Source of the DNA: Filosporella fistucella
Taxonomy: Eukaryota > Ascomycota > Leotiomycetes > Helotiales
Direction: 5' to 3'
Length of the DNA: 64,000 nucleotides
NCBI GenBank assembly: GCA_030077755.1
Contig: JAQJZZ010000004.1
Span: 1,426,001-1,490,000 of the forward strand
Of this stretch, positions 16,060 to 58,572 are shown piece by piece (the stretch's first letter is position 1; each line of letters begins with the position of its first letter). The position numbers and the translations under genes are program-made. The notes beneath the pieces are model-generated. The model saw nothing but the letters and a program-made list of their open reading frames with translations. It was not told where the DNA came from and did no database searches.

Positions 16060-19000
16060 CTAAATCCCCTCTAACCCCAAACCCAATCCTACACCCCTTC
16101 CCTCTCTTCTCTCTCTCCCATCCTCTCCACCCCTCGCCCTCCTCTTCTCCTCTTCTCTCTCCCTCCTCCTCCTCTCTACCTCCCTCTCCCTCTCCCCCCA
16201 ACTCTTTACAACCCGTTCTCTAGCCTTAACCGCATCCACTTTTTCCGGGAAGTCCCCAAATGAAATAAGATTAGAGCCTATTTTCACACCACCACTACCT
16301 GTGCGTTCCATGGGTTCTCCTTGGTTGGATGAGGGCGTTTGGAAGGAAGAGGGTGTGTTGTGTGGTTGGGGAGGGGAGGAGGTTGTGCTGTGGTTTTGGA
16401 ATTGGGATTGAGATTGAGGGAAGGCGGGGTAGGGTGATTGAAGATAGGATGTAGATTGTGTGTATGAGAGAGGGGTGTTGTGGTGAGGTGGGTAGGGAGA
16501 GGTTGCTGGGTACGGTGACGAGTGGATAGTTGACGGAGTACTTGAGTATATATTTTGCATTGGTGAAGGATTACTCAGCATCGATGGAGCCGGTGCAGGA
16601 GGAAGAGCAGGCGAGTATGTGTAATTAGAAGGTGATGGCGAGAATGAGGGGGCAGTTGGATTGAAAGGCCTTAGTTGTTTCTGAGGGGGCGAGTTGTTAC
16701 TAGGATTAACATTAGTAACAATTACGTCTTGAAACTAAGCTAGAGACTTACTTCTCCTTCTTCTCTCCACCCCACTCGTCCAATCTCTCAATCAACGCCG
16801 CTCTCGCAAACTCCAATCTGGGACTCTTTTTCTTCAGCACTCTCCTCTCACGCTCTCTCCTTAGTTCCTCCAAATCACCTTCTTCCATCTCGCCTCTCAA
16901 AAGATCCCTCTCCCTCATCCGCTCATAGACTTGGTAACTAGTCGGCGGAATCCTAGGACTAAAAGCGGGTAATAAAGGCACCGGTTCCGTCTCAGCAACA
17001 GATGGTCTCCTCCTCCTCTCAATCTGCCCTGTAGAATGTACAGTCTTGTTAGATTGCCCAGACGGATCACGAGACATAGGTTGGGACGTGTATCCACCTT
17101 GTTGATTAGAAAGTTCAGGGCGACCGGGAATGTATGTTGTATTTGAGGCTTCGCGCTGGAGTTTTATGTTTGGCGAAGAGAGGGAGAGGAAGTCGGCGGC
17201 ATCGCTGAGATTAGAATGGGAGGCTGGTAGTGAGCCAGTGAAGGAGTGAGAGGCAGCAAAATTGGGAGACGGGATGGCCAAGGGCGAGGAGGATGTAGTT
17301 TTGATATATTCGGTCGGTGGGAGGCCTTCTAAGCGGGGATAATCCGAAGATGGGTATGGCCCATGACCAAGAGGCAAATTTTCTTGGCTGTAATTACCTG
17401 GCATATCATATATCCCATTATCAGAGGATGGATACAAATACGGCGACGAAGGGTAAGGGGGGATCGGCGTTCGAGGCGACGCAGGAGTAGGGGCAATGAC
17501 CTCAATAGGAAATCTCTGCAGTGACTCCATTGCCGAACTTCGAGGTCTGTCCAAAGTCGAAGTGCTCTCACTCGAGCTGATTTGCGGTTCAGTGCTTGGT
17601 CGAATGAGCTCCTTGAAGCTGGATATCGTGTCTCTTGTCGCATCTGCTACAGCAGCAGCATATGATGGCTTCCCCGTCGTCATGCGATCTCCTCTCACAG
17701 AAGATCTTCTCCGATCTTGAATCGTACCTCCACCTCGCGCAGGTGGTGGACTTTGAGCGGTGATGTGTGCTAGAGACACTTCTGCACCTGATCTACCAGT
17801 AATCCTTCCTCTGGATTGAGCACGAGAAGAACTTCGCTGAAGATATCCTTGCGCATTCTCCGTACTAACTCTCGGATCAATAGCGTTCATAGCACGATAT
17901 GCTCCTGCTGTATCTCGGTATCTTGTTCTCTCGAGGTTTTTCACAGTACGATGGAGTGGCAGTGCCTCAGGTCGGCCCCGAGGTCTGCGAGGTTTGACTT
18001 CTTCCCACTCACCAGGGTTATCTGGATTTTGTCGTACCGTTCCTTGAGATAGCTGGGGTGTCATTGCTATCGAAGTCTCTCTGTCGCTATCATAACCAGG
18101 GTCCTCGGGCATTGGCATAGGGAATTGACTTCGATGAACAAGCTCTATTCGCCTCTTGTATTCCGCATGACTAATGCTTTCTGGAGATTCCAATTGTCCC
18201 TTATCTGGTTCAAGTCCCCATGTTGATACAGCAGAAAGAGTCTTGTCCCATCCAGGCGTCTCTGGACCAGTATCTGATGAAGAGCTCGTACGGTCAAAAA
18301 TCGATGTTTGCAAGACCTCTGATCTCCCTCCAGCAATAACATCAGACGACTCAGGTGTCCGCCGTTCGATCTCTGTCTTGATCAGTTGAAGCCGTTGTTC
18401 AAGCTCATTGAGAGCCTCGTTGAGGACAATCTTCTGATTGATCTCGAGATGCTTCTTCAGGTGATTTGTCAAATGTTCTTTAAGCTTCAGTCCATGAATC
18501 TCATATAGCCGATAATCCTCAACAAGACCAGCATGGGTCTTACGAGTGATGCGCTCATTTGCATGGTCGTATGAGCAGCAGAAGACCCCTACAGCTCGAT
18601 CAAGCCAGATAGGAAGTGATCCATCTGCAGCCAAGGTGTCGACGAAGAAACCTTGAACGACACCGTGAAGTCGGATAACGTCCACATTATCCGCCAACAG
18701 CTCTCGACTGCCGTGGGAGCTTTGAGAGGAGTGGACAGGATAATCGTGTTCGTTTCGCTCAATCAGAGCGAACGTGTTGAGAATTTTGAAAGTGTTGTTC
18801 AATGAGTTCCCAGTGACACCTTCGAACGCTTTTACCGAAACATCCAGAGCTTTCAATCCAAGGGATATCATTTCAACCGGGATTACTTGGCTAAAGAAAC
18901 ATAGAATATGAACCAGATTTAATGCCTCGACGGCACCTAGCTGTTTCAATTGCTCAACAACTGCCAAATAAGTTCCCAGTCCTCTTAGCCTCGGCTCGGA

Positions 19001-21301
19001 GGAGTATGACCTTGCAAATCTCGAAAGAGGCTCATCTGTGGCTTTAAGTCGCTGAGAAACAGCGTGAATAACGACCGGTAAGAAACCCATTGATTGAACC
19101 AGCTCATTTGCATATCTCAGGTCATCTCTATGAAATGGTTCGCGTCTGCCGAGCTCAAGAAGGAGAAGTCTCTGAGCTTCTCTCGCCGATAAGAGAGGAA
19201 GTTTAATGATTTGCGGGTTCATGAAGTGGTGATCTCCGATGACAGATCTCTCAGTGGAGGTATATATCAAACCCGTGTTCTTGTTGTCTGGAATGAATTT
19301 CCGAAGAAAAATGTGGTCTCCGAAATGAATTCCGTCAAGAACCAGAAGCCAGTGCTGTCGGTGATTGAACCATTTTCTGACCATCCGAATAAATTGTTCT
19401 GAATCCCTTTCACCCATGTCGCTGTCAATCGAATGTTTCAGTGCCACTTTTCGAGCAATGTCCCAGAAGCCTGATGCGAGTTCCGCCGAACTTTTGGCCC
19501 GCAGCCAAAAGATACCACCTGGAAAGTCATCTTTATGTTCGTATACATACTGCCGTGCGAGGTGAGTCTTGCCACCTCCTGGAAGTGATTGGATGAGTAC
19601 TGCAGAAGTGCCTTCTGCTCGTCTTTTGGGATCAAATAGCATTTTGTGCATTTGAGCTAGCTGCTCTTCTCGTCCGACAAAAAGTGAGTTTGGACGAAAG
19701 CCAGAAGGCTTGATAAAGTAAGCTGCCTCGGGTTCAGGTGATTCAGGCGGGATATTCGCTACAGGATTGACAATAATCGTTGAGCTAACTAAGGAACCAG
19801 GATCTACAAGAAAGACAGAATCAGCCCTTGCCCACCAATTGAAGCCTCTGAATGACAAATGGAATTCGTGAAAGAAAGCAAAGCCATGACTTCCAACCCA
19901 AGCGAACCCAGCAAACTTGAAAGTGAGAGCGCCAATATCATCAATCCGCTTCCTCATATTCAGCCGTCTCATATTCAAATCTTGGTTTCGGTTGAGCTGA
20001 AGGTCCAGCAATCATAGCTGGAGTCCTTTGCTGGACTTGCGAACTCGGTAACATACCAGGTGAGTTAGGGGCACTAGTTCTTGGTTGTGGTGTAACCGAT
20101 TCCTGGAATTGATTAGAATGATTGACCAAAGGCATAGGATGAATGCTTACACTAGGCCCTCTCAATTTCGAAATCTCATAATCAATCTTCTGTTTCCTTG
20201 ACAATCTCTCATCCTCCCAATTTCTTTGGATGATAGGAGGGCCTATTAGAGGTTAGATATCTGACTTTAAAATGAACAATCCTTGAAAAGACTTACACTC
20301 TTGAGCCCAAGACCTGAGGGTAACCGAAACATTTGTGTATCCTGGCGCATTTTTGCTCTCAAACTTGCACATCCCCGAATGCGTCGCCTCAATGCCAAAA
20401 TACTGGACATCTGGCAGCATTGGTGCCGCGGAAGCTTGGTCTACAATCAACGCTTTTGAGCCCTTCAGATCTGTAGGATGACTTTCATGCACCATACACA
20501 CTTTCAGCCGATGAGGATAGATGTCCAGAAATTTCAGGTTGATATTTTGCAGCGTCTCGTTGTTGTTCTTCAAGGTCTTGACAAGCTGTGAGTGCGACTC
20601 GAGGAGTTTCTTAGGAATCATTGCGTCGACCATGCCCTGGAGTATGACGCCCCATTTCGCTACATCAGATCCGGTGTGAGGTGTACCGAGGAATATGATG
20701 CCGTAGGTAGAGACATAGATAGACCGCAAGTGGCCATCACTGCTTCCTTGAAGGTCATTGGATAGTTCGAGTGCGCGTTTGACCAATATACCACCCAGAC
20801 TGTGTGCTACCCATATTATAGGATGTTCTTCTACGTCCTCACTCTTTCTCTCCAGGGCCAAGTTTGTCAAAAGGGTTTGTGCATGTTGGTGGATCATATC
20901 CGAGCTAGAGAAGTCAGTATATATATAGCGGTACACATAATCTCAACCACATACCTTGGCCCGCCCTTATTGCTTCCGAATGTATACACATCCGCATTGT
21001 AACCATACACCAGTATCCTCGCTTGGAATTGCTTCAGTGAGACCGGCAGTAGCTGCGAAGGCCAAAAGACTCCATTCTTCGCTGTCCAAGTATTTTGCGG
21101 GTGTCCATTCAAGCCATGCACAAGCACAATGTCGACCTTTGCATCGGGATGCGAGTACACCTCCGTAACCTCAAATCGTTTAATCTCGTTGGGATGGATA
21201 GCGGAGCCCTGCACACAAGTCAGTTCCATCTCTATGCTTTGTTCCAAAGCGACCATAGGGTTTTGTTGGCCGGGACGTACCATGCTTGTGTTGTTGTCCA
21301 C
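16060..21301 (-). CDS. LipA-like hydrolase plus NB-ARC STAND protein (fungal NLR-like)
   Basis: Exons read as 21301-20955, 20904-20297, 20242 to 16752 (one or two internal splice uncertainties) and 16669-16060, about 1,680 residues. The N-terminus is an alpha/beta hydrolase: VLVHGLNGHP, nucleophile Ser151 in AHSLGG, FLGTPHTGSD, and EATHSGMCKF for the catalytic His. An NB-ARC NTPase follows: FVGREEQL, P-loop LPGGGKTHLARQ, Walker B HWLLVLDG, IYTSTE, and MGFLPVVIHA at the GLPLA position. The last 650 or so residues are disordered and Ser/Pro-rich and end in an Arg/Glu-rich helix. No ankyrin, WD or TPR repeats are seen. Such LipA/NB-ARC proteins are known in Aspergillus and relatives and are thought to act in non-self recognition. 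Near 19955 the frame changes without an obvious canonical intron (see findings). Confidence 0.82.
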
Positions 21302-37912: not shown

Positions 37913-39761
37913 ATGTTTTCTCTAAGAATTTACTCTATATTGGTAGCCTTTTTTTGTTCACAAGTGCTCGGCGAGAAAATAGCTCTGATCCACGATCTCC
38001 ACGATCGCCAAATATTCGTACCGGTTTCAACGAGTTGCAGTGGAACATTATGTCCAAAATCCACCAGCTCCAGCTTCAAATCCAGCTCGAGCTCGGCAGT
38101 GAAAGTCATTTCCAGCTCAAGCAGCACCAGAGTCTCGTCGTCTTCAGTCTCAAGGACCTCATCATCTCTAACCTCCATTACTTCAAAAGTCTCAACACTC
38201 CCTTCCAGCACAACGATCAGCTCTTCAGCTAGCTACAACTCCCTCAAATTGACCACCACCTTCACACAACCGCCAGAGTGTACTGGTGGCTTCACGTATG
38301 TTTGGATATCTTACTATTGTCCCAAATTTGGCTAACTTAATTCTCAAGTGCCATTCAGGACTGGGGGACTGATCTCTTCAACAATCTCATCTATTCTCAA
38401 CCAGGTTTCAATTTGGGATATACAAGTTGTTTCCCACCTCAGTTTTACTCCAGCGTTCTCGCAATGAGTGCGTCCACGACTGTGGGTGCGTTCAGTGCTC
38501 TGATCTGTCCATACACGTGGGAGACCTACGACATAAATTCAACTTATATAATTTGCTGCCCTAAGTAAATTCAGTGTTTCTAATTTATGAAGGTTTTACT
38601 CACAAGTTAAATAGAGGATATAACCTAATTGCACCTAACCTTGAGGATACTGTTCGCCCTGGTGATGGAGCTGTATGTTCGTCAGCCATCGGAGGTGGTG
38701 CATTGCTTGACATTACCACATTCGATTCCACAGGTGGTCAAATAGTCGTAGCAGCCACTGCTGGGGATGATGGAACTATTGTTTGGGCTAATGCTTTCGA
38801 TGGATTTACTACCTCTTTGGCCAATCTTTCCACGTCAACTTCAAGCTTCATGACGACTAAGTCGTCACTCATCTCCAGCTCATCGTCACTTACAACAAAA
38901 TCATCAAGCTCCTCAGCGGCAACAAGCAAAGCTGCAAGCTCTACCTCGTTGGTCTCGACCTCCAAAGCCTCTAGTTCTTCCTCATCTGCATCCACCTCCA
39001 AAGACTCCAGTTCTTCCTCATTGTTATCGACTTCCAAAGCTTCGAGCTCTTCCTCATTGGCATCTAGCTCCAAAGCCTCCAGCTCTTCCTCACTAGCATC
39101 GACTTCCAAAACCTCAAGCTCCTCAGTATCCACAATCAAGGTTTCAAGCTCATCAAGTTCACAATCTTCATCTAAGCCTATATCCACATCGGCTTCGAAG
39201 ACAACTTCCTCTAGCCGCTCAAGTTCAAAAGTATCGACGACCACCGTGGGCACTGCCATTCCTGGTGAATCCAATTTACCAGCATGCGGCCAAACTTGCT
39301 TCAACAATATGCTTGCTCAATACTCCACTCTAGGATGTGCCCCACTGGACTCATACTGTTTGTGTAGCAACGTCAATTTTGGTTTCGGTCTTCGTGATTG
39401 TTCCAACGGGGCATGTGGAACAGCCGTCGCCAGCACGGTGATAGCTTTTGGCAATGCTTACTGTTCGTCCGCCACAGCTACTCATACACCTACGGTATCC
39501 ACAGCAATCCCGGGAGAATCTGCTTTACCCGCATGCGGCCAAACTTGCTTCAACAATATGCTTGCTCAATACTCCACTTTAGGATGTGCTCCACTGGATT
39601 CATACTGTTTGTGTAGCAATGTCAATTTTGGTTTCGGACTTCGCGATTGTTCAAACGGGGCTTGTGGGACCGCCGTTGCTTCTACAGTAATTGCCTTTGG
39701 AAGTGCCTATTGCTCGACTGCCACTGCAACCCATACCGCCCGAGCAACAACGACTAAATAA
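37913..39761 (+). CDS. Secreted Ser-rich protein with two near-identical CFEM domains
   Basis: Three exons (37913-38295, 38349-38564, 38615-39761) give 581 residues. Signal peptide: SILVAFFCSQVLG. Then a Ser/Thr-rich stretch, a Cys-containing globular part (PPECTGGFT, SCFPPQFY, YIICCPKGYNLIAP, AVCSSAIGGG), a long Ser tract with a 12-residue repeat (STSKASSSSSLA type), and two CFEM units at the end. Each unit has eight Cys with LDSYCLC holding the Asp that in Candida Csa2/Rbt5 binds haem iron. No hydrophobic GPI tail follows the second unit (it ends in a Thr/Ala/Lys stretch), so it is probably secreted or wall-bound by its glycosylated tract. Roles known for the family: haem or iron capture, wall integrity, effector activity. 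Confidence 0.85.
38955..39128 (+). repeat. 36-bp minisatellite in the Ser-rich tract
   Basis: Nearly five units of 36 bp starting at 38955, 38991, 39027, 39063 and 39099, each coding a 12-residue Ser/Lys repeat such as STSKASSSSSLA. Units differ by a few bases. Such coding minisatellites in fungal wall proteins often vary in copy number between strains. Confidence 0.85.
39258..39736 (+). repeat. 249-bp tandem duplication encoding two CFEM units
   Basis: Copy 1 is 39258-39506 and copy 2 begins at 39507. They share an unbroken run of about 48 identical bases around the first two Cys codons, then differ mainly at third codon positions, while the 70-residue cores differ at only three or four amino acids. 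Confidence 0.9.
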
Positions 39762-48569: not shown

Positions 48570-49871
48570 ATGGGTTCCACCACTCAAGAGTCACTCAACA
48601 TCGCTGTCGTCGGCGGTGGTCTTGCTGGTCTCGCCCTAATAATCGGTCTCCTTCCCCACAAACATATCAAAGTCACCATCTACGAATCCGCGCCCGCCTT
48701 TGCCAAAATTGGAGTCGGTGTTGCATTTGGCCCAAATGTGTGTCGAGAAATGAATCTCATTTCTCCTGATATCCTAGAGGGGTTTAAGAGATATGCTACT
48801 GGTAATTCGGAAAAGTATCCTGAGTTGGCTGATAGTTGGGCTGGATTCAGATATGGAATGGAGAATAAGGATGGGCTTAAGAAGTATGGGGATTTGACTT
48901 GTGATTTGAAAGGTCAGGGCGTGGGTGGTGGATTGGGAACAAGGAGTTGTATCCATCGAGCAAGGTTTCTTGATGAACTTGTTGCTTTGGTGCCAAAAGG
49001 AACGGCCAAATTTGGTAAAAGATTAGTGGGGCTCGATGAGATCCCTGGAGAGGGAGTAAATCTGAGATTTGCGGATGGTGAAGTGGTGGTCGCTGATGCA
49101 GTAATCGGTTGTGATGGAGTCAAGTCAGTCACGCGAGAAGCAGTATTCGGTGAAGAAGGAAAGAATGCGAGACCAGTCTTTACTGGCGAATATGCTTATC
49201 GAGCACTTGTGCCACAAGAAGTTGCAATTGAAACGCTAGGAGAGGAATTGGCACTAAATGCCCAATCGTATTGTGGATATGGAGGGAACATCATGTCCTA
49301 TCCAGTCGAGCACGGCAAATTCATCAACATCGCGGCTGTGAGGCAGAAAGGCGATAAGCAGTGGGATAAAGAAAACCGGATCATTCCATCGACTACTGAG
49401 GATATGGTCAAGGATTTCGAAGGATGGGGAAGTAATATCATTGACTTGATAAGTAGATTCGAGACGAAGGACAAATGGGGATTCTTCGATATCCCGCATG
49501 AGCAACATTATTACCGTGGTAATATCTGTCTTTTAGGAGATAGTGCTCATGCCAGTACTCCTCACCTTGGAGCAGGAGCTGGTATGGCATTTGAAGACGC
49601 ACATATTCTATGCAATCTCCTGGGAGAAGTGCGAGAGACGAAAGATTTGGAGAAAGCATTTGGGTGTTACGATCAAGTGAGAAGGGAGAGAACGCAGAAT
49701 GTGATTGAAGCTAGCAGAAAAGCAGAACAGGTCAATTTTTTCCAAGGAGAAGGAATCATGGATGATTTTGAGAAGCTGCAGCCCGACGTTGAAGCTAGAT
49801 ATCGGTGGGTTTGGGATTTTGATCTGGAGGCCACACTAGTGGAAGCTAAAAGTATGTTCCATGAACTGTGA
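48570..49871 (+). CDS. FAD-dependent monooxygenase, salicylate hydroxylase-like
   Basis: Single uninterrupted exon of 433 residues, the usual family length. Rossmann FAD-binding motif at 12-25 (AVVGGGLAGLALI) with the acidic strand end TIYESAPAF; the family Arg at IHRARFLDEL; the DG motif VIGCDGVKSVTR at about 175; and GDSAHASTPHLGAGAGMAFEDA at about 318-340, which binds the FAD phosphates. This is the class A flavoprotein hydroxylase group that hydroxylates or decarboxylates aromatic acids with NAD(P)H. The exact substrate cannot be told. It is intact although both neighbours are broken, which suggests it is still under selection or is the youngest survivor of a degraded catabolic or secondary-metabolite cluster. 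Confidence 0.9.
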   Translation: MGSTTQESLNIAVVGGGLAGLALIIGLLPHKHIKVTIYESAPAFAKIGVGVAFGPNVCREMNLISPDILEGFKRYATGNSEKYPELADSWAGFRYGMENKDGLKKYGDLTCDLKGQGVGGGLGTRSCIHRARFLDELVALVPKGTAKFGKRLVGLDEIPGEGVNLRFADGEVVVADAVIGCDGVKSVTREAVFGEEGKNARPVFTGEYAYRALVPQEVAIETLGEELALNAQSYCGYGGNIMSYPVEHGKFINIAAVRQKGDKQWDKENRIIPSTTEDMVKDFEGWGSNIIDLISRFETKDKWGFFDIPHEQHYYRGNICLLGDSAHASTPHLGAGAGMAFEDAHILCNLLGEVRETKDLEKAFGCYDQVRRERTQNVIEASRKAEQVNFFQGEGIMDDFEKLQPDVEARYRWVWDFDLEATLVEAKSMFHEL

Positions 49872-51823: not shown

Positions 51824-52380
51824 CTACTGTCCAGACTCTTCTGATTCTGTGTCCTTCGAATCAATGCCATATGAGCCTCTCCCAAAATATCGAGCTTGTA
51901 AATGATCTGGCTGAAGTGCATTCCCACTGACATCAGCAGAGCGGATTGCTTTGTCTTTTCCAGAGGTCTCGACACTTGATACAACACCAGGCCAGTCTGC
52001 TCCCCAACCATCCGCCGTATTTGCCCTCGAAACTATGCTATTGCTTGAAAATTCGCGCTCTTCTGTTGGTGTACTATCAGTCAGCTTGACAATACCCAGC
52101 AAATTTGATTTAAGAGGTACGGTAATGTTGGCAACTACCTACTAATTTTGGCTAAACCATCACCTTCATCAACACTCCCCGCGTGATAAACGGGGCGTTT
52201 TACTAGCGCTTTGGAAGTCTCATCAGTGCCTTCTAGTTGAGAGCCATGATATGCAGCCTGGGTGCCGCCGACAAGGTCAAGTCTCTTCATTTTGTACCCC
52301 GCATGTTCGTTCTTGGGGACAGGAAATGTGGCACTCAGTGCCGCGAGTCCCAACAAAAGGGGTAAACCATATAGTTTCAT
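51824..52380 (-). CDS. Small secreted protein, unknown (candidate effector)
   Basis: Two exons (52380-52143, 52062-51824) give 158 residues. The N-terminus is a good signal peptide (MKLYGLPLLLGLAALSA, probable cut before FPVPKNEH). The mature part is small, acidic, with few or no Cys, and has two KR dipeptides (KMKRLD, LVKRPVY) where a Kex2-type protease could cut. The splice was chosen as A|GTAGGT to CAG|AA because it is the only join that keeps an open frame and it has a CTGAC branch site. A sequence in another frame covers 51784-52011 and is a shadow. I know no family. A secreted peptide precursor is the alternative to an effector. Confidence 0.55.
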
Positions 52381-52768
52381 GATAGCAATAAGATATGTAT
52401 CTAATGAAGTTGCTTTTGTCAGTTTTGCACGTCTTGAAAGAAGAGATGAGGTTGTTGATTGTCATGTGAAGAAGCTGAGCTTGAAACTGGGATCATTCCG
52501 TATTCGCTTCCAGGGTAAGAACGTACAAGGGGTAAAGTCAGGAGGGTAGCTTATTGGACGCCCTATGTGGAAGGATTCTAGAGCTGATTTACTGCATACC
52601 CGGGATATAACTGTAACTGGTTTTAATTTTGTTCCAAACTTATTCCAGTAAAATTTGGTAGAATACGGTTTCCTGATTCGTCCAACGACCCTGGTAGCGG
52701 AGAATATACTAGAAGCAAAATTACAATTATTACCACGCAGACCAAGTACTTGTATACATACGTTGTAC

Positions 52769-53009
52769 GGAGGTACAGCCCATAAGTAAAGTAACAGCGC
52801 TAGCAGGGTTCCTAACTTTTTGCCCCAACGCAACAACAACGCAAAAAGTTGCAAATAACTAGATCAGTATATTCATTCGCTATTAAGCAGTATTCAGGTG
52901 TTTTAAACATGTTCTTCTCGTCAAGTATAGCAAGAGTTGTGTGGTGTTGGAATCGCGTTTTTGGATCCGACCCTTGTCAACTGTTACTTTACTTATGGGC
53001 TGTACCTCC
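52769..53009. repeat. 29-bp perfect inverted repeat, arms about 180 bp apart
   Basis: The left arm (52769-52797, beginning GGAGGTACAGCCC) and the right arm (52981-53009) are exact reverse complements over 29 bases. Weaker similarity continues outward, including a shared GTGGTAATAA about 60 bp away. This suggests two inverted copies of a longer decayed element, such as a MITE or transposon end. No transposase is seen. Confidence 0.85.
52814..52850. repeat. 10-bp hairpin inside the inverted-repeat region
   Basis: AACTTTTTGC at 52814-52823 pairs with GCAAAAAGTT at 52841-52850 across a 17-base loop rich in CAA. It lies just inside the left arm of the larger inverted repeat and may be part of the same element. 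Confidence 0.75.
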
Positions 53010-53688
53010 ATATGTGCCATGGTTGTGTAAAGTCCTGGAGTTGAGGCTGGAGGCTGATTCGTGGATGTGTGGTAATAACTCACAAACCATATACTCTATA
53101 CACCTAACCATAAGCTTTGACTACCGTAGCGTGCAATGTCTAGTCTCAGTATTGTCTAATACATAGATACCGATGTGTCATTTTATACATTTCTGCTCCT
53201 AAGGTACATTCCTACTGCTTCCCACGAAAGCCATGCGTCAAGACCCTCTACCGAAAAACTCAAAAATCTTGAAGCCCACGCATTGAAATTATTCTTAAGG
53301 TTGAAAGAGATGGTAGGTTTAACAAGTTCCGACGACGCTAGAATAAAGGGAAATAAAAAGTCCCGAACTCCAACCTATGATTCCCAAGCTCGCAGTGACA
53401 TTTGTTAAGGTGAATTCTGAATCATGAACTTGTGCGCGAATTGGACCAAAAAAGGAGGTACTCAATGCCAGTTTACTGCTGTGAATTTACTTTTGCCCAA
53501 TGTTAGACTATAAAGCGGTGCAATCTTCACGCCGAAATAATTTTCTATCATCGAGCAACAACCAAGCGCTCTCACATCAGCTCGCAGGACGACGAAGACG
53601 ACGCTCCACTCTCATCGCACGACACCACATCTAATCTCATCAGTCCCATCGAGCACCCACCCGCACGGCGCAGACCCTTCCTGCAACT

Positions 53689-54015
53689 ATGGGCACAACG
53701 GGATCTAGGCTCCAGAAGCTTGAAAATGCGCAACCTGAACCATCACCTGGCGAAAGATGGAGGACAATACAAGAGGAATGGCGAGTTATGATGTTCAGAT
53801 GCAAAGGACATCGAGCTCTTGAACATGAGGGAATAAGCCATTTGAATCTTCTCGAGTGCCATAGAGCTCACCTTCAAACGTGTCTCAATGGACCCAAGTG
53901 CCCTCATGATGAACAATGCGGAGAGTGCAAGCAGCTGCGAATTGCGGGTACCTATTCAAAAGGCAAGGGAAGAGAAGTTATCATGGAAGAGACTTGTATG
54001 GCTTCGAACGGATAA
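53689..54015 (+). CDS. Small Cys/His-motif protein A with N-myristoylation-like start
   Basis: Single exon of 108 residues starting MGTTGSRL, which fits the N-myristoylation pattern MGxxxS. The centre has CKGH and then CHRAHLQTC, NGPKC, DEQCGEC, i.e. C-x3-H-x3-C-x5-C-x5-C-x2-C, which could bind zinc. Two more small genes downstream on the same strand share this arrangement. The tail (GTYSKGKGREV) is basic. The ATG context (CAACTATGGGC) is acceptable. I recognise no family. It is short, so the gene call depends on the motif shared with its neighbours. Confidence 0.6.
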   Translation: MGTTGSRLQKLENAQPEPSPGERWRTIQEEWRVMMFRCKGHRALEHEGISHLNLLECHRAHLQTCLNGPKCPHDEQCGECKQLRIAGTYSKGKGREVIMEETCMASNG

Positions 54016-54645
54016 TCTTGGAGTCATAAGGGTGAAGATGGATCTTGATGCTTGATGTAGGAGCTATGTAAATGCGATGCTGTTGGATATACCAATAAAG
54101 TTTGGTCAAAACTTTCAGTATTCCTTGAAATAATTTGTGACTTGCCTTTGTCAAAGATTTCTCTTTAACAATCGATAACTTGAAAGCTTTTTAAAAAAAA
54201 AATTCAGAACCGAAAATTTTCTAGATGTCTTTATTGCTAGTATTGTTGCTCCTAAAGGAACTGTCTTATGTGACCTGAGATAGTGGTTGTAAGTGAGGTT
54301 CTGTTTTATTGTCAACAGACGAGAAGAGAATATGACTAAAGATTCACGATTTCTTCCATATTCTTTAGCTGATTCATGAGGCCATTGAATCACAACGATA
54401 ACCATTTGGATCTATGCTGTGAATGAACATCGGATGTAGATTGCGTTAGGATTTTGCCTATTTAAACCAGCGACATATCTCGTGTAACGACAAATATCAT
54501 CAACCAATATTAAACCTTTAGTCACCTAACGAAGAGTAACTCACAAGTATGTCCCGCACATAATGTCCAAAGCAAGCCTAACTTGACTAGGTCGATACCA
54601 AACTCCCTCAGAATTAACACTTCCAAACTTTCGAATTAAGTCACA
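54016..54645. other. Spacer between small genes A and B
   Basis: About 630 bp, A+T-rich, with no other gene seen. It probably holds the 3' region of gene A and the promoter of gene B. Confidence 0.55.
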
Positions 54646-54855
54646 ATGGGTAATTCTCAGTCCAAGAGCTCTTGTGACCACCGCATTGGTAAATGCGAAG
54701 ACCATGTAGAGAGATGCGATGGTAAAAAATGCGGGCTTCAGAAGCCATGCAAAACTTGCAATAAAATTCGAGAATCTCGTCAGGATCAGCGTGCTAGAAT
54801 GATCTCAAACATTAAAAGGCTTGGAAACTATCAGGAGAATTATCAACCTCGGTGA
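54646..54855 (+). CDS. Small Cys/His-motif protein B with N-myristoylation-like start
   Basis: Single exon of 69 residues starting MGNSQSKS, a strong N-myristoylation pattern (Gly2, Ser6, basic residue after). Then CDH and KCEDHVERC, GKKC, QKPCKTC: C-x2-H-x3-C-x4-C-x5-C-x2-C, followed by a basic helix (NKIRESRQDQRARM). ATG context CACAATGGG is close to the fungal optimum. The spacing matches genes A and C, so the three look like diverged tandem copies. A membrane-anchored small zinc-binding adaptor is a fair guess, no more. Confidence 0.62.
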   Translation: MGNSQSKSSCDHRIGKCEDHVERCDGKKCGLQKPCKTCNKIRESRQDQRARMISNIKRLGNYQENYQPR

Positions 54856-55358
54856 AGGGGCATCATTTCATCCTTGGGGTTGGCCCATGTTGAGCATGAG
54901 TGTGGTGTGTAAGTTGTGAAATGAGTGGTTTATCGTTGCATTTTGTGGTATTGAGTGAGCATTCGGAACACATGGAGGATCTTGGAGATGAAACTCAATC
55001 ATGTGGGAAGTAATAAGTCTTGCCAGGGCACATTAAGAGTCCTTCTAAAGAAACGTGATCCACACTGACCATTTGAATTCTGTCTCGGTTTTCTATTGAA
55101 ACGAAGCTCGTTCTAAGCTTTTATCTAATCCTGTGTTGGGTCCCCAGGTGTACTGAAATCGAACTTATGAACTTTGGTGAAAGGTGATAAGTTCGGCTTA
55201 CTGTGAATTTGTAGTTCGCTCTTTCCCAACTTACGCAGTTGTCTATAATCTGTGCATACTTGCGTATTAATTTCCAGACTCCTTGCATACAACAACGACT
55301 TCTTCAAGAGCAGTCATAAATCACAGGAGACCGCAATTTCTCAAAAGCCCTGGACCCA
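54856..55358. other. Spacer between small genes B and C
   Basis: About 500 bp without a supported gene. An upstream exon of gene C could lie here; a frame at 55252 is out of register with gene C. Confidence 0.5.
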
Positions 55359-55784
55359 ATGGCTGTCAAAATTATGTGTTACATTCGCAGGCATCTCCAC
55401 CACGATCGAAGGCTCGCAAGCTGCAGTGAACATGTTGGAAAATGCGGGGCAGCTGAATGCTCTCGGAAATGTGGTCGATGCAAGAAGATTCTCAGATTAC
55501 AGCATGAGGCGAACGAAAGATTTGAGGATGTGATGGAATTTCTGAACTCGAAGAATTGGCGTGGCAATGCTGCTGGAGCCACTGGAGACTACATGGGAAT
55601 TGAAATCGAGGCTACAGGAGCAAATAATTCAACCGTCAGAGGCGTTGACACTCGAGGAGAAACACCTTTGCATGTGTTGGAGAGATATGAGCTACAGCGG
55701 ACTTGGTCTGGATCCACAATCGCAATCGAAGATGAAGGAGTAGGCGAGAATCTGCAGGTGTACCTTGGTTATGGTACAAGCTGA
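55359..55784 (+). CDS. Small Cys/His-motif protein C
   Basis: Frame of 141 residues. Residues 20-46 hold CSEHVGKC, AAEC, SRKCGRC: C-x2-H-x3-C-x4-C-x3-C-x2-C followed by KKILRLQHEANERFEDV, closely matching gene B's order. The rest is acidic with GETPLHVLERYELQRTW and ends LQVYLGYGTS. Unlike A and B it has no MGxxxS start, so either this branch lost the lipid anchor or the true first exon is upstream. A different frame (55252-55533) covers the same DNA but lacks the motif. Confidence 0.55.
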   Translation: MAVKIMCYIRRHLHHDRRLASCSEHVGKCGAAECSRKCGRCKKILRLQHEANERFEDVMEFLNSKNWRGNAAGATGDYMGIEIEATGANNSTVRGVDTRGETPLHVLERYELQRTWSGSTIAIEDEGVGENLQVYLGYGTS

Positions 55785-57138: not shown

Positions 57139-58572
57139 TCAATTCAATAATATCGAGCCTCGAGTTTGGTTTTCCGGCACGCTCTCTTTAGTATTCATTT
57201 CCTTCTGATGTGTATCTCCTTGAATCAGGTACCCGCTTTGCTGACCTTCAAGTTCAATACTAGAAGAATCACTCCCTTCACTCTCTCGTTCTAAGTCAAC
57301 GCCTGCATCCAAACAGTCTTGCCTGAGACGTTCCACATCTCGCTCAATCTCCGATATCTTGCCTTTCAATTCAGCCTCTTCCAAGGCAAAGCCAGTAAGA
57401 AATTCCCTTGTATATTCATCAACCTCAAGATTGGCGTGGCTTCTGAAATTTTGCTCTTCCAAAGCCATCTCATACTCTAGGGTCATATTGTGATATTTCT
57501 CCTTGGCAAGATCAAGATCCCCGAGGCGTGACATATATCTGATTTCTTTAGGGTGGTATCTGTCCTCAAAGACAGCATCGAGACCGAGAAATGATTCTTG
57601 ATCAGGGACGTCACGTGGCATTGAAAGAATTTCGTCTGGTGGGTGGGCCTCCAGCTCTTCAACCTTCGGCATGGCGATAATCTTGGACTTGTATAACCTC
57701 CCTTCTAACTTGGCCATTTCAAACTCTGTCTCGAGTAAATTGCGCTCCATTTGGTCATACTCATCTCGTAATGGACCGTATTCACTCCTTGATAGTTCCA
57801 TTTCCGAGTAACAATCCTCCAGAGCACTATCCGACCACTTGATTATTGTAGGCATGGACCGCTGTCTCCTGATAAAATTGATAAACCTCTCATCTGCTGC
57901 GGATTTCACGATCTCTTTGTCGTTAAGGTGTGTTCTTTTCCTTTGAAGGGCTGCGCGTAATCTCAGTGAATGAGCTCTCAGTGAAAGCAATCTTCCCCTC
58001 TCGTTTATACTAATGTTTCCGTCGCCGTCCACATCATCGAAAATATCTCCCTCCATCAAGTACCTGTCCATTGGTCCGGGAAAAGTACGGATGGCACTTG
58101 ATGGAGTTTCTCTTGCAACAGGGAGTGATATAGGAGCAGCTGCCTCGTGAGTATCTGTGACTTGGTCGAGTGATGTGCCTGGAGAGCTTGACTTGGATTC
58201 TTCTTCATGTGATACTGAGAGATCTTCCTGCTCTATGCTACTGGTTTCGGCCTCCTGGATAGCCTGTACGTGTAGCGATATCCTTTCTGGTGTTGAAGAG
58301 TCCACGGGAGCACTCAGGATGGGCTCATGGGGAGTGCTGGTATCTTGCACAAGTTGTTCTTGATGAGATAAATTTCTTTCTGTCATTGTCTCTGTGCCTT
58401 GACTGAGCCGATTGAAATTGCTTATAACCGTGAGGGAACTGCCTGTACTGCCGGCATGAGTGTCCGTAGAAAGGACCGAGTCTCGCCTTTTTATCTTTCG
58501 AACCAAGTTCCATTTTCCATCAGATAGTCTCGAGACCCATTTCCGGCTTTTTATTTTGTGCACGTAGAACAT
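57139..58572 (-). CDS. Coiled-coil protein with a single canonical EF-hand loop
   Basis: Single exon of 477 residues; family not recognised. Residues 1-30 are basic (KIKSRKWV, RKIKRRDS), then a disordered Ser/Glu/Thr-rich region. At 180-191 lies DVDGDGNISINE, a perfect EF-hand calcium loop (D-x-D-G-D-G-x-I-x-x-x-E), preceded by YLMEGDIFD and followed by the helix RGRLLSLRAHSLRLRAALQ. From about 195 to 440 the protein is mostly charged helix (YDQMERNLLETEFEMAKLEG, LEEAELKGKISEIERDVERL) that should form coiled coils. The end is Ser/Glu-rich. It may be a calcium-regulated scaffold, which is only inference. Confidence 0.65.
   Translation of the reverse strand: MFYVHKIKSRKWVSRLSDGKWNLVRKIKRRDSVLSTDTHAGSTGSSLTVISNFNRLSQGTETMTERNLSHQEQLVQDTSTPHEPILSAPVDSSTPERISLHVQAIQEAETSSIEQEDLSVSHEEESKSSSPGTSLDQVTDTHEAAAPISLPVARETPSSAIRTFPGPMDRYLMEGDIFDDVDGDGNISINERGRLLSLRAHSLRLRAALQRKRTHLNDKEIVKSAADERFINFIRRQRSMPTIIKWSDSALEDCYSEMELSRSEYGPLRDEYDQMERNLLETEFEMAKLEGRLYKSKIIAMPKVEELEAHPPDEILSMPRDVPDQESFLGLDAVFEDRYHPKEIRYMSRLGDLDLAKEKYHNMTLEYEMALEEQNFRSHANLEVDEYTREFLTGFALEEAELKGKISEIERDVERLRQDCLDAGVDLERESEGSDSSSIELEGQQSGYLIQGDTHQKEMNTKESVPENQTRGSILLN

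What the first reader, a model, noticed from the sequence alone, without database searches (positions are those of the whole stretch)
53689..55784. Three consecutive small genes share a Cys/His motif; two look N-myristoylated
Seen in the sequence: genes at 53689, 54646 and 55359, same strand, each code a motif C-x(2,3)-H-x3-C-x(4,5)-C-x(3,5)-C-x2-C followed by a basic or helical segment. Two start with MGTTGSR and MGNSQSK. The rest has diverged, so the shared Cys/His pattern is what selection kept. I know no family with this layout. Inference: a tandemly expanded group of small zinc-binding, membrane-anchored adaptors or effectors-like proteins.
Basis: partly seen in the sequence, partly recalled or inferred. 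Interest (0 to 1): 0.78.

Follow-up and report, generated by a model that had tools for sequence, protein, structure and literature searches.

The report
Three tandem orphan Cys/His mini-genes
Three neighbouring small genes in a fungal chromosome carry the same unusual pattern of likely metal-binding residues, two of them with a signal for fatty-acid anchoring to membranes; they look like old duplicates of a gene not recognised in the databases searched, but it is not yet shown that they are expressed.

Summary
Three ORFs (g1 53689-54015, g2 54646-54855, g3 55359-55784, all +) share C-x2,3-H-x3-C-x4,5-C-x3..5-C-x2-C. That pattern occurs three times in six frames of 260 kb, exactly here, and 0 times in 25 Mb of order-3 random DNA. 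With the shared Cys/His fixed, the rest of the core still beats permuted residues (3 of 20,000 as good). A further upstream Cys aligns, so every Cys of g2 and g3 is shared. Of 643 ATG ORFs of 60 aa or more in the 260 kb, only g1 and g2 start MGxxxS[KR]; the genome encodes a myristoyltransferase.
I conclude: an old tandem paralogue group, probably zinc-binding, two members myristoylated. No family match in Pfam nor, for g2 and g3, in a protein database that includes related fungi; PDB shows only a weak ankyrin-like match in the g3 tail. The effector idea is unsupported.
Against: ORF length and codon usage do not show coding, leave-one-out profiles are weak, fold models are poor; zinc, lipid and expression are untested.

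The parts
53689..54015 (+). g1, 108 aa ORF, MGTTGSR start, Cys/His core near the middle
   Evidence: ATG context AACTATGGG; TATAAA 180 bases before the ATG and AATAAA 79 bases after the stop
53689..53709 (+). g1 N-myristoylation-like signal MGTTGSR
   Evidence: fits the recalled PROSITE pattern; one of only two MGxxxS[KR] starts among 643 ORFs
53800..53928 (+). g1 Cys/His region, C38 to C80 (core C57-C80 at 53857-53928)
54646..54855 (+). g2, 69 aa ORF, MGNSQSK start; the smallest form, core plus basic helix
   Evidence: ATG context CACAATGGG; TTTAAA 185 bases before the ATG, no polyA-like word of the four sought within 300 bases after the stop; low-confidence helices 17-24 and 36-63
54646..54666 (+). 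g2 N-myristoylation-like signal MGNSQSK
54673..54759 (+). g2 Cys/His region, C10 to C38 (core C17-C38 at 54694-54759)
55359..55784 (+). g3, 141 aa ORF, no Gly2, same core plus a longer C-terminal tail
   Evidence: ATG context CCCAATGGC; TATAAT 115 bases before the ATG, GATAAA 51 bases after the stop
55377..55481 (+). g3 Cys/His region, C7 to C41 (core C22-C41 at 55422-55481)
55647..55673 (+). g3 tail: lone ankyrin-like element DTRGETPLH
   Evidence: designed-ankyrin hits of g3 in the PDB sequences, best E 0.0015; [DN]xxGxTPLH twice in 260 kb, the other in a frame that reads as ankyrin repeats by eye; no Pfam ankyrin match

Best explanation
Three old tandem duplicates of one small gene, in a helotialean fungus, encode a compact metal-binding module: a short helix with C-x2,3-H-x3-C, a loop with one Cys, and C-x2-C at the start of a basic helix. 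Six Cys and one or two His could hold one or two zinc ions. In g1 and g2 the cell's N-myristoyltransferase would acylate Gly2 and, helped by nearby Lys/Arg, hold the module on the inner face of a membrane, where the finger and its basic helix dock a partner protein. g3 keeps the module without the anchor and has a longer tail, and may act as a soluble partner or competitor. Shown here: the ORFs, the shared skeleton, core similarity beyond the Cys/His, the MGxxxS[KR] starts, the NMT gene and the absence of relatives in the collections searched (g1 was not searched in the large protein database). Inferred: expression, zinc, acylation, membrane docking, the adaptor role and the fungal order.
For: Core similarity with the shared Cys/His fixed: three-way p 0.00015, g2-g3 0.007, g1-g3 0.045, g1-g2 0.050. 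g2-g3 BLASTP E 4e-5. All Cys of g2 and g3 lie in the shared set. g1 and g2 are the only MGxxxS[KR] starts among 643 ORFs. NMT_C is present, E 1.4e-78. ATG contexts look usable, and g1 has a TATA-like and a polyA-like word at fitting distances. A DNA search of the own genome found no second copy of the 2.6 kb, so it does not look like a repeat element.
Against: ORF lengths are ordinary: per 260 kb of order-2 random DNA about 363 ORFs of 69 aa or more, 68 of 108 or more, 18 of 141 or more. Codon score is no better than random ORFs for g1 and g2 (fractions of null at least as good 0.20 and 0.50) and only modest for g3 (0.016); for synonymous choice alone 0.22, 0.53 and 0.10. Leave-one-out profiles: g2 came out best non-training segment at E 0.098, g3 second at 0.46 behind a chance segment at 0.019, g1 not among the 12 rows printed; profiles of single cores list only one other member, g3 at E 4.9 from g2. 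BLASTP finds no significant g1-g2 or g1-g3 match (E 1.3 and 0.14). No DNA similarity between the copies or their flanks in 9 of 9 comparisons. Fold models are poor, mean pLDDT 57.8 and 42.3. No homologue found in what was searched.
Confidence: 0.58

Rival explanations
1. Real paralogous genes, but the conserved Cys/His and basic helix serve nucleic-acid binding or metal buffering rather than protein docking at a membrane.
For: g2 is basic (pI 9.5) and tiny with 6 Cys in 69 aa; a helix follows C-x2-C (low confidence).
Against: Two of three begin with a myristoylation-like signal that no other of 643 local ORFs has in the form MGxxxS[KR], which points to membranes. The spacing is an ordered pattern with a His, unlike the C-x-C runs of metallothioneins (recalled).
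Confidence: 0.17
2. Non-genic or dead ORFs: chance open frames, or relics of an old duplicated gene, whose shared motif is partly a product of looking for a pattern after the fact.
For: Ordinary ORF length and codon use; weak leave-one-out profiles; no homologues of g2 and g3; no expression data available.
Against: Six ordered ligands in three consecutive same-strand ORFs, residual similarity outside the ligands, and two matching N-termini. Relics would be expected to have lost frames or ligands.
Confidence: 0.2
3. Secreted or delivered effector-like proteins.
For: Small, Cys-rich, without known relatives, which is how many fungal effector candidates look (general knowledge); an 81 aa ORF with a signal-peptide-like start (by eye) lies about 1.3 kb upstream of g1 at 52135-52380.
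Against: No strongly hydrophobic N-terminal stretch in any of the three; Gly2 signals belong to cytosolic proteins. The organism's lifestyle is unknown here.
Confidence: 0.05

Closest known systems
TAZ-type zinc fingers (Pfam PF02135, CBP/p300)
   Same: H-x3-C at the end of a helix, then Cys in a loop, then Cys before a basic helix: similar ligand order and a protein-docking role (family description recalled; no TAZ sequence was aligned here).
   Different: zf-TAZ had no match in the own genome at E up to 10 (that search's control genomes held no match over the cut-off either, so its power is unproven); no Pfam match of the three ORFs or cores to it; here there is an extra C-x2,3 before the His and a C-x2-C at the end.
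RING-like binuclear treble clefs (B-box, ZZ, UBR-box)
   Same: Six to eight Cys/His ligands, enough for two zinc ions; PMC4506424 (listing and one passage seen) gives B-box and ZZ ligand strings CC/HCCCCHH and CCCCCCHH.
   Different: Ligand order here is C-(H)-C-H-C-C-C-C; no Pfam match and no PDB sequence match in the Cys/His region beyond chance level.
Small N-myristoylated adaptor or anchor proteins of eukaryotes
   Same: MGxxxS[KR] start followed by basic residues.
   Different: No sequence relation to any found; acylation is predicted only from the pattern.
Lineage-specific (orphan) genes of filamentous fungi
   Same: Small, without Pfam domains or database relatives. [quoted passage not shown]
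   Different: These three share a recognisable ligand pattern and lie in tandem, so they can be grouped without homologues.

Membership tests
zf-TAZ (PF02135) | match to the family profile | tested here: not met
   no match in the own genome at E up to 10; none for the ORFs or cores in Pfam at E up to 10 (HMMER filters drop most matches above about 0.1)
zf-TAZ (PF02135) | helical bundle with three HCCC zinc sites (recalled) | tested here: not met
   only 6-7 Cys in g1-g3, too few for three HCCC sites; models too poor to judge the fold
RING-like treble clefs | eight ligands in the family's order | tested here: not met
   observed order C-(H)-C-H-C-C-C-C differs from the orders quoted and from RING (recalled)
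N-myristoylated proteins | Gly2 with small or polar residue at 6 and no Pro at 7 (PROSITE pattern, recalled) | tested here: met
   g1 and g2 yes, g3 no (sequence). 7 of 643 local ORFs fit the PROSITE pattern, so by itself it is weak evidence
N-myristoylated proteins | NMT enzyme in the organism | tested here: met
   NMT_C at G000:C1:600924-601619, E 1.4e-78, one stop inside the match, perhaps an intron
N-myristoylated proteins | acyl group present in the cell | not testable with these tools
   needs metabolic labelling or mass spectrometry
zinc-binding proteins | bound zinc | not testable with these tools
   inferred from conserved Cys/His only
secreted fungal effectors | signal peptide | tested here: not met
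   simple hydropathy check only, no dedicated predictor: highest 11-residue means near the N-terminus -0.49, -0.65, 0.65
tandem paralogue group | adjacent, same strand, similarity beyond the defining motif | tested here: met
   but leave-one-out profiles weak and g1 not linked by BLASTP

The most novel reading that the evidence does not exclude
A new eukaryotic zinc module of about 30-45 residues with ligand order C-(H)-C-x2,3-H-x3-C-x4,5-C-x3..5-C-x2-C, carried by a family of myristoyl-anchored mini-adaptors that arose within one helotialean lineage, with a soluble member (g3) that has an ankyrin-like tail and may regulate the two anchored ones.
Probability: 0.25. Interest if true: 0.55.

Novelty: new variant of a known kind. 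Interest (0 to 1): 0.4.

Why it matters
Fungal orphan genes are hard to group or to give a testable role. Here three neighbours share a metal-ligand pattern and two share a lipidation signal, so clear predictions follow: zinc content, Gly2-dependent membrane localisation, and loss of partner binding when a Cys is removed. If real, it is a small zinc module not in the libraries searched here and a case of diversification by gain or loss of a membrane anchor. If not, it is a useful caution about patterns in small ORFs.

Tried and rejected
Repeat-element origin: not supported; a DNA search of the own genome found only the 2.6 kb itself (the tool warns that it skips common words) and there are no direct repeats of 20 bases or more in 50-60 kb. 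Recent duplication: rejected, no DNA similarity between copies. Further copies in the genome: six own-genome protein searches (full ORFs; cores) found the genes themselves and four weak places. One (L003) holds only the tail half, C-x5-C-x2-C, between nearby stops in a region that reads like a polyketide synthase by eye. These searches are insensitive: the g2 query did not return g3, so diverged copies elsewhere are not excluded. MOSC match of g3 (E 0.13, under the cut-off) and an MgtA-leader match of g1 (E 4.1): taken as chance. PDB profile hits to mitoribosomal mL53 and others (E 0.25 or worse): taken as chance. Foldseek on the g2 model in the PDB library: 0 matches at E up to 10; other libraries and the g3 model were not searched, the models being too poor. 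Viral contigs with alignment A3: 40 pattern matches, 0 confirmed. Plasmid tblastn of g3: 6 records, best E 0.2, taken as chance. Papers: 0 hits for the g2 N-terminus and 0 for one topical search; in four others I saw only the listed titles and abstract starts (15 of 18, 10 of 473, 10 of 18, 10 of 97), and none of those named this family. One search is void: my pattern was one base out of frame and could not match the genes; its counts were not used.

Full report
What is there. The window lies in a 45.77 Mb genome of 19 contigs, at C3:1426001-1490000. It is fungal. A control search with the window's FAD monooxygenase (48570-49871) gave 695 proteins at E 1e-50 or better among 7,997 scored. Of the 120 listed, the best-scoring is 72% identical over the full length, and the best named one (71%) is from Hyaloscypha sp., with Ciborinia, Botrytis, Monilinia, Cadophora and Oculimacula lower down. 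I read this as a helotialean ascomycete without a close relative in that database; that is inference. The three ORFs g1 (53689-54015, 108 aa), g2 (54646-54855, 69 aa) and g3 (55359-55784, 141 aa) lie on the + strand, 630 and 503 bases apart.

The shared pattern. All three hold C-x2,3-H-x3-C-x4,5-C-x3..5-C-x2-C. Alignments also pair one more Cys upstream (g1 C38, g2 C10, g3 C7), so all six Cys of g2 and of g3 are in the shared set; g1 has a seventh, C103. One to three His lie between the first and second Cys in each, so eight ligands, hence two zinc ions, are possible.

Is it chance? In 25 Mb of order-3 random DNA the first scored 0 and the looser one 5. A still looser one with Cys and His interchangeable found 9 matches in the 260 kb, 6 of them elsewhere. 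The patterns were written after the genes were seen, so I ran a test that does not use the motif itself: with the shared Cys/His columns fixed, the remaining core residues are more alike than when permuted (three-way p 0.00015, g2-g3 0.007, g1-g3 0.045, g1-g2 0.050). The alignment used there was set by hand on the Cys/His. A second feature agrees: of 643 ATG ORFs of 60 aa or more in the 260 kb, 31 start with MG, 7 fit the PROSITE myristoylation pattern (recalled), and only g1 and g2 start MGxxxS[KR]. That both fall among the three motif ORFs has a chance of about 3 in 206,000 by my own counting, though this pattern too was chosen after the fact.

Evidence that weakens it. ORFs of these lengths are common by chance, and codon usage separates only g3 weakly (0.016; 0.10 for synonymous choice alone), g1 and g2 not at all. 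BLASTP sees g2-g3 (E 4e-5) but not g1. Leave-one-out profiles searched against 5,267 six-frame segments put g2 first among non-training segments (E 0.098), g3 second (0.46) behind a chance segment (0.019), and did not list g1 among the 12 rows printed; of the single-core profiles only g2's lists another member, g3 at E 4.9. DNA of the copies and flanks is not alike in 9 of 9 comparisons, so any duplication is old. AlphaFold models have mean pLDDT 57.8 (g2) and 42.3 (g3). The helices seen (g2 17-24 over C-x2-H-x3-C, and 36-63 around C-x2-C and beyond) make sense but are not evidence of a fold; Foldseek against the PDB found 0 matches for the g2 model.

Relatives. Pfam gives nothing for the ORFs or cores beyond sub-threshold noise. 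No protein of the 5.8 billion database shares three 5-residue words with g2; g3 had 14 candidates and none at E up to 10. The control shows that several Helotiales are in that database, so these two negatives carry some weight, although small unannotated genes would be missed. g1 was not searched there. PDB sequences: none for g2, one weak for g1 (E 0.56), and for g3 133 sequences at E up to 10, of which 60 were shown, nearly all designed ankyrin proteins (best E 0.0015), mostly over residues 78-110 around DTRGETPLH. That word pattern occurs twice in 260 kb; the other copy is in a 774-residue stop-to-stop frame that reads as ankyrin repeats by eye. It occurs five times in 15 Mb of random DNA. 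Pfam sees no ankyrin in g3, so I call it a lone ankyrin-like element and no more. In the own genome, six protein searches gave self-matches and four weak places, none with the motif; these searches miss diverged copies, since g2 did not find g3.

How it probably works. NMT is encoded, so g1 and g2 could be myristoylated on Gly2 and, with nearby basic residues, sit on the inner face of a membrane. The Cys/His module, folded around zinc, would present a small surface and a basic helix to a partner. g3 has the module but no anchor and a longer tail, and may be a soluble partner or competitor. Every step after the sequence features is inference. A paper passage (PMC3668125, passages seen) notes that residue 6 matters for acceptance by fungal and mammalian NMT: Arg there is rare. 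Ser, as in g1 and g2, is the common choice (recalled).

Compared with what is known. The ligand order recalls TAZ fingers (H-x3-C, then Cys in a loop, then a basic helix; recalled), but the family profile has no match in the genome (a search without a working positive control) and three HCCC sites cannot be made from six or seven Cys. It fits no RING-like ligand string quoted (one passage). I therefore file it in no family: probably a small zinc-binding gene group restricted to one lineage, not in the libraries searched, of a known general kind (tandem orphan paralogues). The effector idea has no support: no strongly hydrophobic N-terminus.

Noticed in passing
window 52766-52797 and 52981-53012: A 32-base inverted repeat, 97% complementary, 183 bases between the arms, upstream of g1; could be a hairpin or small mobile-element remnant.
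   Followed up: no
window 54737-54758 and 57426-57447: A 22-base inverted pair, 86% complementary, one arm inside g2 and one inside the 477 aa ORF downstream; may be chance.
   Followed up: no
window 16748-20897, - strand: A 1074 aa ORF with sub-threshold AAA_16/NB-ARC matches, preceded on its strand by a 214 aa ORF that reads like an alpha/beta-hydrolase domain (by eye): resembles a fungal NLR-type (STAND) protein gene.
   Followed up: partly
window 38850-39761: Ser-rich protein with two CFEM stretches that look nearly identical by eye, which suggests a recent internal duplication.
   Followed up: no
window 52135-52380, - strand: 81 aa ORF with a signal-peptide-like start (MKLYGLPLLLGLAALSATFPVP, by eye), upstream of g1.
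   Followed up: no
window 57139-58572, - strand: 477 aa ORF with no Pfam match at E up to 1, rich in charged, apparently coiled-coil sequence by eye; the long ORF downstream of g3.
   Followed up: no
L010 849-3173: 774-residue stop-to-stop frame that reads by eye as ankyrin repeats and shares the DxxGxTPLH word with the g3 tail.
   Followed up: partly
window 55647-55673: Lone ankyrin-like DTRGETPLH element in the tail of g3; whether the tail was captured from an ankyrin gene is unknown.
   Followed up: partly
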